From Castor canadensis (taxonomy: Eukaryota; Chordata; Mammalia; Rodentia; Castoridae): a stretch of 64,000 bases of DNA. The translations under genes and the position numbers were made by a program. The notes below the pieces were generated by a model. It had not been told where the DNA came from and made no database searches. It was given only the letters and a program-made list of their open reading frames with translations. The stretch is taken from assembly GCF_047511655.1 (NCBI RefSeq), contig NC_133392.1, forward strand, positions 162,740,542-162,804,541. Reading direction: 5' to 3'. Below are positions 43,661-53,268 of the stretch, piece by piece; the first letter of the stretch is position 1; the number at the start of each line of letters is the position of its first letter.

Positions 43661-46341
43661 ATGTGTGTGGAGGCTTGGCGGCCCACAGCCCTTCTGCTGG
43701 GACTTGTGCTTGGAGCTGTGGCAAAGCTCAACTGTGTTGGGGACACCTACCCCAATGGCCTTCGGTGCTGTCATGATTGCCAGCCAGGTGAGTGACCTGG
43801 CCTCGGTGGGGGTCTTGTCTGGGAGGAACAGCGATGGAGACAGAGGTGCAGGCATCCTGGGGTGAGTGGATTCAGGTGACACTGGGTAACACTCCCGAGG
43901 ACCTGGTCCCAGGCTTAAAACAGAGGAGACTGGTCCTGGGGGAGTGGGCCAGGCCCTGCCACAGCCCAGAGGAGCCAGTGTGCTGAGTTGCCACAAGCTT
44001 GGTCCACAGCTGACCCTGTTTGACCTAGTGGTCCTGCTGCAGGCAGTGGAATGGTGAGCCGATGCGACTTTGCCAGGGACACAGTGTGCCACCCATGTGA
44101 GCCAGGCTTCTACAATGATGCTGTCAACTATGAGCCTTGCAAGCAGTGCACACGGTGCAACCAGGGTGAGCACCGCCCATCCCAACTCCACCGTCCCACC
44201 CAGCACAGGGGGGAGGATGAACGGCCACTACCACAATGGGTGCCCACATTCCAAGGAGGCTGCAGAAGCAAGCCCCAAATGACTGTACAGCCTGCTTCTT
44301 CTGGGGAGCCCTGAGAAGCCAAAGCATCTCCCGAGGCACCTCCCACCTCTGGGGGCCAAAGCTCAACAGGACCACATAGAGCTGGTGTGGACCACATGTT
44401 GGTTTGTGGTCTTGCCTGTGCTGGCCTGGGTAGGGACTTTCTGGAGTGGGAGCCTCAGAGGGTCCTGATTCATGTGCTGGAGGCAAGTGGAGGGAGAGTG
44501 GAGAAGGGAGGTCAGGTGGCCATAGAGCTGTCCCCAGGGTCACATGATCAGGAGGGACAGCGTGGCCACCAAGGTGGTCTCAGGAGGAAAGGGCCTCAAG
44601 GCCTGCAAAGTGGTCTGGAGCAGGCTGTGTCAGCCTCTCAGCCTTAACTCTGTGCCTGCACCTAGGGAAGGCAAGCCCACCTTTCCTGGGGCCCTGTACG
44701 CAGGGCTGGGCCAGTCAAGCCTCCTCCACAACCCCTGCCTCTCCTCCCCCACCCCAGGAAGTGGGAGTGAACTCAAGCAGAACTGTACACCCACTCAGGA
44801 CACTGTCTGCCACTGCAAGCCGGGCACCCAGCCCCGGGGGGACGGCTACAAGCGTGGAGTTGGTGAGCTTCATGGTGACCTCTGGACTGGGGTGTGTGTG
44901 TGTCTGTGCATGGTCAGTGTTTGTGAGGTGGTCAGGGTCTGTATGCTTTGACCACCTCGAGTCACAGACTTGGTGTAAAGGAACCAGGTCTCTAGCTCTC
45001 ACACTGTCCCCTCCTCCGCCATTTTCCCTACGAGGCTGAATCAAGAGCCCCTTCCCAGTAAACTATGCCAAGAATGGGGCTCCTGGTCAGCTCCCCAGTG
45101 GGTGGAATCCAGGCAGGGAGGAGCACCGTGGGGGTTGAGCACCATGGCGGGTAAGCACCAAGCCCCATAGGCATCATCTCCAGCAGCCTCAGCATCCAGG
45201 GCCCCACCTGGCAGCATTAGGCAGCTGACCTGTCCAGTGTCTTTGCTGCAGACTGTGTCCCCTGCCCTCCCGGCCACTTCTCCCCAGGCAACAACCAGGT
45301 CTGCAAGCCCTGGACCAAGTGAGTGCTGTGGTGGGGGACTTGGGTACGAGAGGGGATCTGGGCTCAGGAGCTAGGGGTTGGGAGGGCCTGGCTGTACCAT
45401 GGGCCAGATCAAGAAGCAGAAAGCCACCGGCCAGAGGAGCTCCTGACACCTGCCCCTCAACACACACCGTCTGGGTGGAATGGGTGCACAAGACCCCAGC
45501 CCAGGCTTAGGAGATGTGTGAGAATGCATCTTCATTGGGCTTCCACTCTAGGGGGCAGTGGAAGAGGTGCAGAGTGAGGGGTTGGGAGTGCAGAGAGCAG
45601 GACTGGAAGGGAAGAGGGCACAGAGGCAGGGGCAGGCCTGTGGCCTGTGGGTAGAGGCCTGGGCTGCCTTTGGTCTAGAGTCAAGGGTTACCCAGTATCA
45701 ATCCCACTGTCTGTGGCCTAACTCACATCTCTACCCTCAGCTGCACCTCTGCTGGGAAGCAGACTGCACGGCCAGCCAGCACCAGCTCAGACTCTGTCTG
45801 TGAGGAAAGGAGGAGCCCCCAGGCCACATTGCCCTGGGAGACCCAGGGTCCCACAGCTAAGTCTACTGCAGCCACGCCCACCACGGCCAGGTCCACCATA
45901 GCCCAACCCACCACAGTCTGGCCCAGGACTTCTCTGGGACCCTCAGCACCTCCCTCAGAGGTCCCCAGAGGTAAGGGGGCCTCACCAGCAGGGGAGCGGG
46001 GAGGAGAGAGGGATGGCAGACTCACTCAGCTGGATCCTTCTCCTAGGCTCCACGTTGGTTACCATCCTGGGTGTAGGCCTGGGCCTACTGGCCCCCCTGG
46101 TCTCTCTGCTAGCCCTGTACCTGCTACGAAGAGCCTGGAAGTGGCCTGATGCCCTCAAACCCTCTGGTGAGTGCCTGCTGTGGACCCAGCCTAGCCCAAC
46201 TTCTGGAGAGGTGAGACCCACCCACCCACTCACAACCCGCTGCCTCTCACTCACTCTTTCCTCCTCCCAGGGGGAAACAGCTTTCGGACCCCCATCCAAG
46301 AGGAGCAGGCCGACATGCATTTCACCCTGGCCAAGATCTGA
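43661..46341 (+). CDS. TNFRSF4: TNFRSF4 (OX40, CD134), T-cell costimulatory TNF-receptor family member (7 exons)
   Basis: Exons are 43661-43787, 44043-44165, 44758-44862, 45252-45318, 45741-45970, 46047-46166 and 46271-46341 (843 nt, 280 residues). A signal peptide at about 1-22 is followed by TNFR cysteine-rich domains at about 25-160 (NCVGDTYP, CCHDC, GMVSRC, DTVCHPC, PCPPGHFSPGNNQVCKPW). A Thr/Pro-rich stalk covers about 165-216, a membrane segment about 221-243, and a short tail contains the TRAF-binding motif FRTPIQEEQAD (262-272) and ends TLAKI. OX40 on activated T cells binds OX40L and signals through TRAF2/5 to NF-kB. An in-frame ATG six bases upstream (43655) would add Met-Arg. I chose 43661 because it has A at -3 and matches the human MCV start. 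TNFRSF18 follows 4.6 kb downstream on the same strand, as in other mammals. Confidence 0.96.
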
Positions 46342-46486: not shown

Positions 46487-46492
46487 AATAAA
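46487..46492 (+). terminator. TNFRSF4 poly(A) signal
   Basis: AATAAA lies 146 bp after the stop codon, with GT-rich sequence (GTGAGTCTGTGACTGG) starting about 12 bases later. A second AATAAA lies at 46841-46846 inside the left arm of the inverted repeat and could serve as an alternative. Confidence 0.85.
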
Positions 46493-46685: not shown

Positions 46686-47513
46686 CAGAGCTTCTGCCTC
46701 AGTGAACCCTAAAACCTTGGCTGAATGGGATGGGGGTCCAGCCAGGTGCTGACAAGAGCATGCATGGCCCTGAGTGTCCTGGTCACCAGAAGGGCCTGTG
46801 ACCATCGTCCCCCTTCAGTTGGTTTGTCCTCTCTGCTGTCAATAAACACTTGAGCTTTTTCACCTTGAGACTATTTTACATAAAGTTGCTGAGGATACTC
46901 TTTGACGCTCCAGGGCACCTGTTTCTGTGGGGTAAATGCCCTGGAGTGATATCCCTTCTGGTCTCCATAGCTCATGGGGAATATAATACATAGCACTGTT
47001 GTTGCCTCCACTCCCCCCCCCACACCAAACACACATACCTGCTGGGTAGTGGCTTCAGGACCCCCACTGGGCATCACCCTGGGAGTCCCTGGTAGTAGAT
47101 GGCATCTGATGGACCAACCATGTAGGAAAACCAGAACTTCTGCTTGAGCCAAACTTGGTCTGCCCTGAGTCCCAGCCATCCACTTACCCCCATAAAAACA
47201 AGTGCCTTTGGGCCTGAACAAGAGTGTCCTCAGAAGAGAGGACAAATCAATTGTAGTGAGTTCAGGTGGGCTCTGGGGCTGGCAGTAACTCAGTGATGAG
47301 GGACAGAGAGGCTATAACCCCACCTCAAAGTTCCAGGGTCCCAGAGCTGTCTCCAGACACATGGGGTCCTAGGGCCACCATCTGGAAGTGGGAGCATCCC
47401 TTAGGTGACACAGGTGTCCTATGGAAGCTCAGTGAACTAAAGAAAAGAGACATGCATGGGGGCTCTGATCCTGTGCGGAAATGGCCAACAGCTAGGTGAC
47501 TGACCATGTGAGC
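46686..47513 (+). repeat. Long inverted repeat, left arm (828 bp)
   Basis: This segment is the reverse complement of 49770-50599 at about 99% identity by eye. It begins about 195 bp after the TNFRSF4 poly(A) signal. Long stretches, including about 330 bp around 47160-47480, differ at only a handful of positions. The differences I saw are about five substitutions, a 4-base insertion in the right arm and a 2-base gap in the right arm. The segment matches no SINE or L1 type seen elsewhere in the window, has no convincing gene, and contains an AATAAA at 46841-46846. Confidence 0.93.
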
Positions 47514-49769
47514 ACAATCAGAGGCCAGGAGAGTCCAGGTCCATCGTGTCACAGGTTAGGAGCTATCAGGACACTGGGCCATCTCAGCTGCCCTGTGAGG
47601 TTGCATGCAAAGCCTGAGGTAGATAGCAGGGACAGCCTTGCCCACTCCTGCCACCCTGTGGCCACTGGCTTGGCACTGCACCTGTACCTTGCAGCCACAC
47701 CCCCCTGGAACAGGGTGACCCAGCCCCTTGGCATTTACTTGAAGCCCAAGGCTCTATGGAAGAATCCAGTCCTGCACCCCCCTGCCCCATCACCGTCTCG
47801 TTCCCCATTGTCCTTCACTTTCTCCTCAAACCGGATTCCACTCTTTCCCTGTTCTCCAGCGTCCTCCAGGGAGAGTACAGCCACCTGGTCTATTCAGCCA
47901 CCTTCCCTGTGTACAGCCCTGCCCTAAGCCTGGGCAGGGGCAATCGACACATATCTGCAACCCTTGCCCTGTGGTGAAGGCCATCCCTGGAGGGGAAGGC
48001 CAGGAGGCCTGGAGTGGGGTGAGGGGAGGACTAGGAGGGGGATAACTTGGAAGGCCTGGGAGGTCAAAGGTTGTGGGAAAGGTGCCTCCTCCCCATACAT
48101 CCTCTACCTATACCCCTCTGGGTACAGCTCTCCAGCCTTCTAGATGCCCCCTGCCCACTTCAGGCTTCCTGGGCCTCTTCCCCAGCCCATACACCCCAGC
48201 CCCGCCCCCGTGGGCACTAGGGCCACCTCTCTTTGCTCTTGTGCTGTACCCTAAGCACACTGATCATTCCCCTTGCCCTGAAAACTCTGCTTTCACCTCT
48301 TTCTACGCAACAAGGGGATTCCCAGAGGGATGAGCTGCCGGGACCCTCTGCTGCCTCCTACACAAGACACTATGTCAAACAGAGCTGCTCACAAAATATA
48401 GGAAAACAAAGGCACACAGATAAAAATCACCCCTCAGCGGAGCCCAGGAGGGCCTTCAGAGTGGGTGGGACAGGAAGGCAGACAAGGTCACTGACATTTG
48501 CTGATGTCATCTGCTCACAAGCTTCTCCCCAGGTGTATGACCAGATCTTTGATCTCTGTTGCCTGCATGTGGCTGTCACACACAGGGGACCAGGTCTCAA
48601 GGAAAGACCCTCTATTCAGCTCTCTGACAGCCCATACCCCTCAGAGTCTGAGCTGCCCTGCTCTGCAGGACTGCATCAGTCTGTCACTGCCCATGGCCAA
48701 GTTGGGAGGCAACACCAGGGCCATGACCCCCACAAGGGTCACTGCACAGACCTGCTCCTGGGGCTGGTCAAGACTTGTCAACTCCACATGGCAGAGGGGG
48801 CTCCTCACACTGGAAGAACAGGGGACTTGGAGGGCAGTTGACAGTACCATCTGCAGGGAATGCAATGCATTTTCTAGGGCCATGGTGTACTGCTGTACTG
48901 GGCATTCACCATGACTGGGGTGACACTGTGCTGGCTGGCCTCTTTGGTCTTTAAAATGGGTTAGAAGCAAGGTCCAGATTGCCCTGTCCCTCTTCCCTCA
49001 ACTGTCCCAGTGCTCAGATACACCTCCTGGTCTGGGGATTGACAGAGACCTCTAGGCCCTTCAAGATTTCTGACCTGGGCAGCCTGGAATGCAGCATCAC
49101 TGAGACCCCTCCCTGTCCTGTAGTAACCAGGGTTCCCTCTCTGAGGGGCTCTCAACATCTGAGGCTTGAGAAAAATAGGGAGCCACAGCTGATAACACCT
49201 GAAATTTCCTGCTTCCTCAGCCTCCTTCAGCTGCGGTTCTCAAAAGGGCTTTTGTCCAGATGTCCTGGATCTGCCTACTTCACAATGGTCACCCACCTCC
49301 AGCTTGTGGGCAAAACCAATCACATCCTGTGATATCTATGCTCACCTCCAGCACTTCCAGAAGTCCCCACCGGCTTCCCCTGCACAAAGCCTCAACTGAA
49401 GGGCTGGGAAATAAGGCTGAGGAGAAAGGCTTCCTGGTGGAGGCAGGGTTCCAGAAACCCACACGGGGAAACTGAGGCTCCAGTGTGCCTCTGAGGAGAG
49501 ACTGAGACTCAGACATAGCACAGTCTCACCATGAGGTGGCTTTTCCTTTACTTCCTCTCAGACACATGGATTTGTCTGGGTGATAGAAGGTGGCTTGAGA
49601 GAGAAAGAGAATCTCAAGTTGGAACCTGCTCCGAATAGGGCTGGACTGGGCAGCCCATGCTGCCCTTGGTTTCAGGTGCCTGCTGGGGATGATGACCTTT
49701 GTGGAAACACACTATACATGCTCTGGTCAGTCCTCTCAGACCTTCTGCTGGTCCCCCAGGCCTGGAGGA
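47514..49769. other. Spacer of the inverted repeat
   Basis: This 2256 bp of single-copy, moderately GC-rich sequence lies between the arms. The longest frames (143 and 202 codons) carry no motif I recognise and overlap other open frames. No SINEs or RNA genes are seen. Because the arms are inverted, recombination between them could flip this block. Confidence 0.6.
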
Positions 49770-50599
49770 GCTCACATGGTCAGTCACCTAGCTGTTGGCC
49801 ATTTCCACATAGGATCAGAGCCCCCATGCATGTCTCTTTTCTTTAGTTCACTGAGCTTCCATAGGACACCTGTGTCACCTAAGGGATGCTCCCACTTCCA
49901 GATGGTGGCCCTAGGACCCCATGTGTCTGGAGACAGCTCTGGGACCCTGGAACTTTGAGGTGGGGTTATAGCCTCTCTGTCCCTCATCACTGAGTTACTG
50001 CCAGCCCCAGAGCCCACCTGAACTCACTACAATTGATTTGTCCTCTCTTCTGAGGACACTTGTTCAGGTCCAAAGGCACTTGTTTTTATGGGGGTAAGTG
50101 GATGGCTGGGACTCAGGGCAGACCAAGTTTGGCTCAAGCAGAAGTTCTGGTTTTCCTACATGGTTGGTCCATCAGATGCCATCTACTACCAGGGACTCCC
50201 AGGGTGATGCCCAGTGGGGGTCCTGAAGCCACTACCCAGCAGGTATGTGTGTTTGGTGTGGGGGGGGGAGTGGAGGCAACAACAGTGCTATGTATTATAT
50301 TCCCCATGAGCTATGGAGACCAGAAGGGATATCACTCCAGGGCATTTACCCCACAGAAACAGGTGCCCTGGAGCGTCAAAGAGTATCCTCAGCAACTTTA
50401 TGTAAAATAGTCTCAAGGTGAAAAAGCTCAAGTGTTTATTTATTGACAGCAGAGAGGACAAACCAACTGAAGGGGGACGATGGTCACAGGCCCTTCTGGT
50501 GACCAGGACACTCAGGGCCATGCATGCTCTTGTCAGCACCTGGCTGGACCCCCATCCCATTCAGCCAAGGTTTTAGGGTTCCCTGAGGCAGAAGCTCTG
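49770..50599 (-). repeat. Long inverted repeat, right arm (830 bp)
   Basis: This is the inverted partner of 46686-47513. It ends about 380 bp before the TNFRSF18 start codon, so its outer edge lies in or next to the GITR promoter region. Relative to the left arm, the region corresponding to the AATAAA motif has a 4-base duplication (TTTATTTATTG on the plus strand). Confidence 0.93.
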
Positions 50600-50819
50600 G
50601 GGTGGGAGGTGAGGAGGGCCCCCTGAGGGCTCTAAGTGGAGAAAGGACACCTGCAAGGCTGCAGCCTGCAGGTGTGTGTCTGGGGCACCCTTCTGTCTGC
50701 AGTGCACCCAGGGTGAGTGGGCTGTGTGAGGAAGCTTGTCCTACTTTCCTGGATGGCCCTGGGATAAGATTGCTGAGGTACTTTGGAGATGTCATGGAGA
50801 ATGAGCTATTTACTTAATC

Positions 50820-50978
50820 TCAGCCCCAGAAGGTCTTTGAAAGCCCCGCGGGATGCCCCCAGGAAGTTGGAGGTGGAGTGGCTGGAGGTTTTGAAGGCGG
50901 TAGTGGGGCGGGGGCAGGGCGTGTCAAAGCAGGTCCCAGCCTGAAATTCTCAGGTCAGAGGACACCACCAACGGCACA
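50820..50978 (+). promoter_or_regulatory. TNFRSF18 proximal promoter/5'UTR
   Basis: The 160 bp before the start codon contain a GC box (GGGGCGGGG, 50905-50913) and a second G-rich run, with no TATA box. Promoter function is inferred from position and composition. Confidence 0.45.
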
Positions 50979-53268
50979 ATGGGAGCACAGATGGCCCTGT
51001 GTGGGGTCGCGCTGCTCTGTGCACTGGGCCTGAGTCAGCGCCCTGTCAAGGGGGCGAGTTGCCGCCCAGGTCACTTCCTGCGCGGATCGGGCACCGACCA
51101 GCGCTGCTGCCACTCCTGCACTCCAGGTAAGTGGTGGCAAGGAACAGGGGTGGGTGGTGGTGCCCCACCCCAGGCTCAGACCTGGCCACTGTCTCCCAAC
51201 AAGGGTGGGCACAGGGCAATCACACAGCCCGGGGACAAACTTTCTCAGCTTTGGCTGGTGAGATCTCAGAGGGAGGTAGAGGTGCCCAGCTGGGCCAGTG
51301 GCCCCAGGGCCAGGAAGCAAGAGTGAAGGGGGTGGGAGCTATCCCCTCAAGAGGAACCTGGGGTCCAAGGTGAAATAGGGCTGTCTCCAGTCCTGCTGAG
51401 TTGGCTGAATTTTGGTCCTCACCCAGACCACCTCCTGCCCAGTTTGGGGCCCCGACTCTGGCCTTGTGCCTTGTCTGCTGTTGTCTGTGACCTGCAGCTG
51501 TGGGTGTGAGGCAGTCTGAGGACCCAAATCACATGAAAACACCTAGAGTCTCACCCACCAGGCCTGGGGTGGGGGTGGAGAGGTACAGTTCTGGGGGTCC
51601 ACAGCTGGTGTGGACAGTGATGCAGACAGCTACTGAGGTGTCCCTGGGCAGTATAGGATGGGAAGGGGGCAATGTAGGCTCAGGATCCTTGGAAACCCCA
51701 GGAGAATCCCATATTTTGTGGGACGTGCAAAGGCAGCTGCTTCAGAGTAATGTAGGGGGTGTTCTGAGGAGCCCACCACCTGGGAGGGAGAAATTGATCT
51801 GGGTGAAGCCCAGTCCTGGTCTGGGGCTGACTGAGGGTAAGAGTCTGACATCCCCATTGGGGGCCAGGAGGAGCCCCGGAGAGGGAGGGGCTCAGCTCAG
51901 TGGATGAGAGGCTGGCTTATCCCCTTCCAGATGAGGAGACCTGTCCTGAAGGGGACTGTATGTGTATCCAGCCGGAATTCCACTGTGAAGACCCTCAGTG
52001 CACAATCTGCAAGCACCACCCGTGTCCACCTGGCCAGGAGGCAAGGCCTCACGGTATGTCCCTTGGAGGCTGCTATAGGCCCTGTAGGTCCCTGAGCAGA
52101 CCAGGGGTGTGTCCTGGGGCCAAACTGGAGCTTAAGGCATGGGCACATCCTCTGGGCAGGCAGAAGACACCAGTGTCCTGGGTCCTAGAAGGACTGGCCA
52201 GACCAGGGCATTTTTGGTGCCTGTTGGTGTACAGCATTCAGGGAGCCCTCACCTTTTTAGCCTGGGCTTTTCCATCCTGAATGAGGGTGCTGATGCTCCT
52301 TCAGGATTGGCTGTGAGGGCCCATGCAGGAGTGTCCAGGGGCTGTTCTGCTCTCAGACCCCCACTCTGTGGCTCAAGTCTTACCACATACCCTGTCAATC
52401 TTTATAAGGATAGATGAACAGTGCCAGGTCTGGACCAGGCACATGTGGGTGCAGATTATTCAGGTCCTAGCTGTACCGGTGTCAGAGAACTCTGGTGAAT
52501 GAATGACATGTGGGGCCAGGCCATAGATGGACCCATGCACCAGCCTGATCCTCTTCCTTGTTCACCCCAGTAGACCCTGCAGTCTCTGTCTGTCCCTAGG
52601 GAATTTCAAGTTTGGCTTCGAGTGTGTCGACTGTGCTGTGGGTACCTTTTCCACAGGGCGAGAGGGCCGCTGCAGACCTTGGGCAGAGTGAGTCCTGAGT
52701 GGGGCCCTGACTGGGTGGTCCAGGCCCAACCCAAGGAAGCCTTTCCTGTCCCTCCCAGTGGGTGACCCCTGAGGGCCCCCAGTGATCCTCCAAATGGCTC
52801 AGAGGACACTAGTCTTCCCAGTGGGGCTGCTTGAGTGGCAGAGGCTGACAGCTTCCATGTCCATGTATCATAGCTGTGCCCAGTTTGGGTTTCTAACCAT
52901 GTTCCCTGGGAACAAGACCCACAATGCTGTGTGCATCCTGGAGCCACTGCCCACTGAGCCACATGGCCAGCTGACCATCATGTTCCTTGCTGTGGCCATC
53001 TGCATCCTTGTCCTAACTACAGCCCAGCTTAGCTTGCACATCTGGCAGCTGAGGAAGCAGCGCATGTGGTCTCGAGGTCAGTTGTGTCCTGGGGAAGTGG
53101 GAGGTGGGCCCCAGGCCACCTGTTGACCACAGCTCCCCTGCAGAGACACAGCCATTCCTGGAAGTACCACTGCCACCAGCTGAGGACGCCTGCAGCTGTC
53201 AATTCCCTGAGGAGGAGCGGGGGGAGCGGTTGGAGGAGAAGGGCCGGCTGGGGGATCGGTGGATGTGA
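50979..53268 (+). CDS. TNFRSF18: TNFRSF18 (GITR, CD357), T-cell costimulatory TNF-receptor family member (5 exons)
   Basis: Exons are 50979-51126, 51931-52053, 52600-52687, 52874-53076 and 53144-53268 (687 nt, 228 residues, the length I recall for mouse GITR). A signal peptide occupies about 1-20. Cysteine-rich repeats run from about 28-140 (RCCHSC, CPEGDCMCIQPEFHCEDPQC, FGFECVDCAVGTFS, CAQFGFLTMFPGNKTHNAVC). Asn133 (NKT) is a glycosylation site. The membrane segment is at about 152-174 and the tail carries the conserved acidic TRAF-binding stretch FPEEERGE (208-215). GITR is high on regulatory T cells and costimulates effector T cells through TRAFs on binding GITRL. The start matches mouse MGAWAM. 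It shares phase-1 exon boundaries and orientation with neighbouring TNFRSF4, fitting an old tandem duplication. Confidence 0.96.

What the first reader, a model, noticed from the sequence alone, without database searches (positions are those of the whole stretch)
46686..50599. Long, near-identical inverted repeat spanning the TNFRSF4-TNFRSF18 intergenic region
Seen directly: 46686-47513 is the reverse complement of 49770-50599 over about 830 bp with roughly 99% identity by eye (about five substitutions, one 4-base and one 2-base indel), around a 2256 bp spacer. The arms match no repeat family I see elsewhere in the window. One arm starts just after the OX40 poly(A) site and the other ends about 380 bp before the GITR start, so GITR promoter-proximal sequence has an inverted twin downstream of OX40. 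Such identity implies a very recent inverted duplication or ongoing arm-to-arm gene conversion. Inference: the structure could extrude as a hairpin, let the spacer flip, or duplicate a shared regulatory element for these two T-cell receptors. An assembly artefact is also possible.
Basis: partly seen in the sequence, partly recalled or inferred. Interest (0 to 1): 0.75.

Follow-up and report, generated by a model that had tools for sequence, protein, structure and literature searches.

The report
Recent inverted duplication between OX40 and GITR
In this rodent-like genome a stretch of about 830 letters of non-coding DNA between two immune receptor genes is present a second time in reverse orientation about 2.3 kb away; it is a real and tidy but ordinary kind of duplication, with no sign found of a special function.

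Summary
Window 46686-47513 (828 bp) is the reverse complement of 49770-50599 (830 bp), with 4 substitutions, one 4-bp and one 2-bp indel (822 of 832 columns identical), around a 2256-bp spacer. The arm was found at exactly two places in the 2.81-Gb host assembly and the spacer at one, so this is unique sequence duplicated once, not a dispersed repeat. Homology stops at both arm ends. The genes either side are OX40 and GITR. Best reading: a local dispersed inverted duplication of neutral intergenic DNA, either young (about 0.3-2.8 Myr at a recalled rate) or older and kept alike by arm-to-arm conversion; without outgroup or population data these cannot be separated. Cruciform extrusion is unlikely with a 2.26-kb spacer. 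A duplicated regulatory element has no support: no clear motif excess, strong CpG depletion, no Pfam match in six frames given, no Rfam match. Assembly error is unlikely but not excluded, as no reads were available. Known kind of structural variant; low interest.

The parts
46686..47513 (+). left arm of the inverted repeat (828 bp), unique non-coding sequence
49770..50599 (-). right arm of the inverted repeat (830 bp), reverse complement of the left arm
47514..49769 (.). spacer, 2256 bp, one place found in the genome
46841..46846 (+). AATAAA inside the left arm, downstream of OX40 and pointing into the spacer (may be chance)
50435..50444 (-). AATAAATAAA inside the right arm on the minus strand, pointing into the spacer; carries the 4-bp difference between the arms
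46487..46492 (+). AATAAA at the end of OX40 (TNFRSF4), outside the repeat
44024..44176 (+). stretch holding an OX40 (TNFRSF4) exon, used to confirm the gene
   Evidence: TNFRSF4, E 2.1e-14
50979..51128 (+). GITR (TNFRSF18) first coding exon, ATG at 50979
   Evidence: TNFRSF18, E 7.8e-06 for this stretch and 2.7e-15 for 51918-52063

Best explanation
A single local dispersed inverted duplication: about 830 bp of unique, CpG-poor intergenic DNA was copied once, in reverse orientation, to a site about 2.3 kb away in the OX40-GITR intergenic region (shown: structure, copy number, abrupt ends; inferred: the event). The joints show 0-1 bp of microhomology if no target bases were lost (read by eye from the sequences), which fits a replication template switch or end joining. 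A 2.3-kb inversion made through staggered breaks would leave the same end product and is listed as a rival; the two overlap as accounts of one event. The structure most likely does nothing; its high identity reflects youth, perhaps helped by arm-to-arm conversion.
For: Exactly 2 places found for the arm and 1 for the spacer in the 2.81-Gb assembly. Flanking sequence beyond the arm ends aligns about as shuffled sequence does: outer flanks score 13, reached by 74 of 300 shuffles; inner flanks score 14, reached by 16 of 300, and that best match is not in register with the arm end. Divergence 4 in 826 sites; at recalled rates of 2.2e-9 and 4.5e-9 per site per year this gives about 1.1 Myr (0.3-2.8) or 0.5 Myr (0.15-1.4). 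The indels are tandem-unit slips, not homopolymer errors. No Pfam match in the 4 arm and 2 spacer frames given, 6 of the 53 frames listed, and no Rfam match in the window. Dispersed inverted duplication is a named structural-variant class (PMC6302372, passages), and inverted duplications recur in human genomes (PMC4901421, passages).
Against: No outgroup or second haplotype shows the unduplicated state. Three of the 4 substitutions lie within 41 bp of an arm end (P 0.004 for four independent events, 0.027 if the two neighbouring ones are one event, 0.015 if the two indels are counted as well; chosen after seeing the data). That pattern would fit conversion of the arm cores, and so an older event, better than plain youth.
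Confidence: 0.7

Rival explanations
1. An older inverted duplication whose arms are kept alike by ongoing arm-to-arm gene conversion, as in sex-chromosome palindromes but small and apparently autosomal.
For: Substitutions cluster near the arm ends (3 of 4 within 41 bp); a run of nine C, expected to slip quickly (recalled), has the same length in both arms. The locus lies about 284 kb from the end of its 163-Mb contig, and chromosome ends often recombine more (recalled), though the contig end shows no telomere repeat.
Against: Only 4 substitutions, so the edge clustering is weak and post hoc. No decayed homology in register is seen outside the arms, whereas an old converted repeat may be expected to have frayed ends (inference). 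No outgroup to date it.
Confidence: 0.15
2. Assembly artefact: a false inverted copy joined in from the other haplotype or a chimeric read.
For: A difference of about 0.5% is within the range of allelic differences (recalled). No reads were available here. The 50 kb just upstream of the window reads as N, though whether that is an assembly gap or withheld sequence cannot be told.
Against: The window has no N and the assembly is highly contiguous (181 contigs for 2.81 Gb). Missed-adapter or fold-back read chimeras give arms with almost no spacer (recalled), not two arms around 2256 bp of single-copy sequence with single-copy outer flanks.
Confidence: 0.08
3. A by-product of a small inversion through staggered breaks: the spacer is inverted relative to the ancestral order and each end carries one copy of the stagger. 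(This overlaps with the best explanation as to the outcome and differs in mechanism, so the confidences do not sum to 1.)
For: Same final anatomy; inverted duplications at the breakpoints of the inverted arrangements only are described for Drosophila subobscura inversions (PMC5080602, passages). 0-1 bp of microhomology at the joints, read by eye, fits end joining.
Against: Spacer orientation in relatives is unknown; an 830-bp stagger for a 2.3-kb inversion would be unusual (inference).
Confidence: 0.15
4. A functional duplicated element: shared enhancer or paired convergent poly(A)/terminator signals that insulate OX40 from GITR.
For: Each arm carries an AATAAA on the strand that points into the spacer: plus strand after OX40, minus strand upstream of GITR.
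Against: AATAAA counts of 1 and 2 against 0.28 and 0.38 expected from base shuffles are not remarkable, and they are one signal copied with the arm. In the arms NF-kB, AP-1, RUNX, STAT, GATA and CTCF-core patterns are absent; ETS is 1 and 0, NFAT 1 and 1, and the FOX pattern 1 and 2 (0.31 and 0.33 expected), a pattern that can overlap AATAAA. CTCF-like sites in the window are at chance. No expression or chromatin data.
Confidence: 0.05

Closest known systems
Dispersed inverted duplication (DIDUP) structural variants (PMC6302372, passages)
   Same: One unique segment copied once in reverse orientation a short distance away, with sharp joints and a unique spacer
   Different: Here seen as a state of one assembly; polymorphic or fixed status unknown
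Palindromes of mammalian sex chromosomes (PMC8981503, search listing with start of abstract)
   Same: Arms around 99% identical in inverted orientation; arm-to-arm conversion is possible
   Different: About 0.8-kb arms instead of large ones, no gene found in the arms, contig looks autosomal (inference)
Inverted duplications left at staggered-break inversions in Drosophila (PMC5080602, passages)
   Same: Inverted copies at both ends of a middle segment
   Different: No outgroup to show that the middle segment is inverted; very small scale
Recombinogenic long inverted repeats (Wang and Leung criteria as quoted in PMC4319165, passages)
   Same: Stem far above 30 bp and identity far above 85%
   Different: Spacer of 2256 bp is above the 2-kb limit

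Membership tests
Dispersed inverted duplication | two copies in opposite orientation separated by non-duplicated sequence | tested here: met
Dispersed inverted duplication | source is unique sequence, not a mobile repeat | tested here: met
   2 genome places found in all (the search skips very common words)
Dispersed inverted duplication | sharp joints without homology beyond the copies | tested here: met
   (74 of 300 and 16 of 300 shuffles score as high)
Dispersed inverted duplication | unduplicated state in a relative or other allele | not testable with these tools
   the genome has no relatives here
Recombinogenic long inverted repeat (PMC4319165, passages) | stem above 30 bp and identity above 85% | tested here: met
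Recombinogenic long inverted repeat (PMC4319165, passages) | spacer below 2 kb | tested here: not met
   spacer 2256 bp
Segmental duplication in the usual sense (length limit recalled) | at least 1 kb and 90% identity | tested here: not met
   arms 828 and 830 bp
Sex-chromosome-type palindrome | identity maintained by arm-to-arm gene conversion | tested here: inconclusive
   edge clustering of 3 of 4 substitutions, post hoc
Terminal inverted repeats of a mobile element | many copies in the genome, or target-site duplications and an element gene between the arms | tested here: not met
   arm 2 places, spacer 1 place; no Pfam match in the 2 spacer frames given; by eye the two outer flanks share no direct repeat at the joints (sequences)
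Staggered-break inversion duplicate | middle segment inverted relative to the ancestor | not testable with these tools
   no outgroup held

The most novel reading that the evidence does not exclude
The arms recombine with each other in this species, so that the 2.26-kb spacer exists in both orientations in the population and sequence 0.4 kb upstream of GITR is repeatedly exchanged with sequence 0.2 kb downstream of OX40: a small autosomal inversion switch between two co-stimulatory receptors.
Probability: 0.07. Interest if true: 0.45.

Novelty: new member of a known kind. Interest (0 to 1): 0.17.

Why it matters
It is one well-resolved example of a sub-kilobase inverted duplication of unique DNA next to a promoter. 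Its main practical value is a warning: short reads, primers or guide RNAs that fall in either arm will hit both places, and small inversions of the spacer could be missed by short-read calling.

Tried and rejected
Regulatory element: a motif scan of arms, spacer and GITR-proximal stretch found in the arms only single matches besides AATAAA: ETS 1 in the left arm, NFAT 1 in each, FOX 1 and 2 (0.31 and 0.33 expected), the FOX pattern being one that can overlap AATAAA (expectation from 200 base shuffles). In the spacer NFAT-like sites were 4 against 1.33 expected, not followed. A CTCF-like core in the spacer at 49529-49540 looked interesting (0.03 expected in the spacer alone), but the whole window holds 2 against 1.66 expected and the fuller consensus with up to 2 mismatches 42 against 37.7, so it was dropped. 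Coding content: 4 arm frames and 2 spacer frames of the 53 listed were given to Pfam and gave no match; of 4 OX40/GITR frames in the same call only one (OX40) matched a TNFR domain, so Pfam misses short exons. RNA families: no match in the window. One site (47476 in the left arm) is a CpG where the right arm has TpG, and 3 of 4 substitutions are G/C in the left and A/T in the right arm; this hints that the right arm took most of the mutations, but it does not say which arm was the source. Species: the window is rich in an ID-type tRNA SINE (18 copies aligned). The beaver paper PMC5335264 (passages) lists SINE/ID elements among beaver SINEs; the word consensus does not occur in its main text, so the species was not identified; rodent is recalled judgement. 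Background rate of such repeats: 258,555 readable bases in all, the window included, could be looked at, too little for a genome-wide rate. The 1000 Genomes structural-variant paper that I recalled is not held.

Full report
Observation. Arms 46686-47513 and 49770-50599 align over 832 columns with 822 identities: 4 substitutions, one 4-bp indel (a tandem AATA unit) and one 2-bp indel (an AG unit), around a spacer of 2256 bp. In the whole window it stands alone; the next inverted pair found is 105 bp at 84% with arms almost 40 kb apart.

Genome context. The own assembly is held: 2.81 Gb in 181 contigs, the window at C7:162,740,542-162,804,541. C7 is 163,075,497 bases long, so the repeat lies about 284 kb from the contig end; the last 5 kb of the contig hold no TTAGGG or CCCTAA, so this end is not shown to be the telomere. 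The left arm as query finds 2 places, the two arms. The spacer finds 1, the OX40-side boundary stretch 1, the GITR-proximal stretch 1. The search skips very common words, so counts of abundant repeats would be lower bounds (stated in those outputs); with that limit, the arms are unique DNA present twice. In the readable 164 kb around it (window plus 100 kb downstream; 50 kb upstream reads N and was dropped) it is the only inverted pair of at least 200 bp and 85% identity, and no direct pair of that size and identity was found. Of 20 fetched stretches (194,555 readable bases, ten of the stretches being those 100 kb downstream) none had such an inverted pair.

Genes. A stretch at 44024-44176 matches TNFRSF4 (OX40; best E 2.1e-14). 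Stretches at 50979-51128 and 51918-52063 match TNFRSF18 (GITR; best E 7.8e-06 and 2.7e-15). Both genes are on the plus strand, OX40 upstream. The left arm begins 199 bp after the first base of the OX40 AATAAA (46487), and 379 bp lie between the right arm and the GITR ATG (50979). None of the exons matched here lies in the repeat; I did not annotate every exon.

Nature of the arms. G+C is 0.52-0.53 and CpG observed/expected 0.05 (left) and 0.04 (right), against 0.09 for the spacer and 0.185 for the window: strongly CpG-depleted, as expected for methylated neutral DNA, unlike a promoter island (inference). Four arm frames gave no Pfam match; Rfam gave none for the window. Motif counts in the arms show no clear excess over shuffles; the patterns that stand above expectation are AATAAA and a FOX pattern that can overlap it. 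Each arm holds a 26-nt internal inverted pair at 85%, which may be chance or a remnant of an old repeat.

Joints. Homology stops sharply: 600-bp flanks outside and inside the arms align about as shuffles do (outer 13, reached by 74 of 300; inner 14, reached by 16 of 300 and not in register with the arm end). If nothing was deleted at the target, the joints share 0-1 bp with the source, which fits template switching with minimal homology or end joining; it does not point to recombination between pre-existing repeats. This reading of microhomology is mine, by eye, from the sequences printed.

Age or conversion. Four substitutions in 826 sites give K = 0.0048 (0.0013-0.0124). At recalled rates of 2.2e-9 or 4.5e-9 per site per year the event dates to about 1.1 (0.3-2.8) or 0.54 (0.15-1.4) Myr, if the arms evolved independently. 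Three of the 4 substitutions lie within 41 bp of an arm end (P 0.004; 0.027 if two neighbouring ones count as one event; 0.015 for 3 of all 6 differences). This was noticed after the fact, but it is what conversion of the arm cores would leave. So recent duplication is preferred and older duplication with conversion stays open.

Mechanism of any effect. Extrusion as a cruciform falls off with spacer length: in the passages read, widening a spacer from 12 to 20 bp cut Alu-repeat recombination about 40-fold (PMC10164571), and the risk is said to rise with arm length and similarity and with a shorter or absent spacer (PMC7999016, passages). A 2256-bp spacer also misses the below-2-kb criterion quoted for recombinogenic repeats (PMC4319165, passages). 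Against this, the same yeast work found that raising the spacer to 30 kb had little or no effect where long single-stranded DNA forms (PMC10164571), so rare inversion of the spacer or arm exchange remains possible.

What is known. Dispersed inverted duplication is a named structural-variant type (PMC6302372, passages). Inverted duplications recur in human genomes and are thought more common than earlier believed (PMC4901421, passages). Inverted duplications at inversion breakpoints through staggered breaks are described in Drosophila (PMC5080602, passages). GC-biased conversion in X palindromes is described in PMC8981503 (search listing with start of abstract only). I saw no title or abstract start reporting an inverted repeat at this locus in the listings (9 of 9, 8 of 137, and 8 of 90 papers listed); that is a narrow search of open-licence papers.

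Verdict. A real, cleanly bounded, probably recent inverted duplication of what looks like neutral intergenic DNA next to two interesting genes. The neighbourhood makes it eye-catching; I found no evidence for a function beyond a duplicated AATAAA. 

Noticed in passing
window 46813-46838 and 47231-47256 (and the same pair in the right arm, 50027-50052 and 50447-50472): A 26-nt internal inverted pair, 85% complementary, about 390 bp apart inside each arm; it could be the ends of an old DNA transposon or chance.
   Followed up: no
window, 11 places such as 5128, 6437, 33912, 43118, 62554: Copies of an ID-type tRNA-derived SINE with core TGGCTCAAGTGGTAGAG (11 matches with up to 3 mismatches against 0.28 expected), which suggests a rodent outside the mouse-rat group (recalled judgement; species not identified).
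   Followed up: partly
G000:C7:162690542-162740541 (L003-L007): The 50 kb just upstream of the window reads entirely as N: an assembly gap or withheld sequence, which cannot be told apart here.
   Followed up: no
L023 (last 5 kb of contig C7): The contig end carries no TTAGGG or CCCTAA although the locus corresponds to a chromosome-end region in human (recalled); the contig may be incomplete there.
   Followed up: no
window 50600-50979: The stretch between the right arm and the GITR start has 2 NF-kB-like sites on the minus strand against 0.09 expected, in keeping with a GITR promoter outside the repeat.
   Followed up: no
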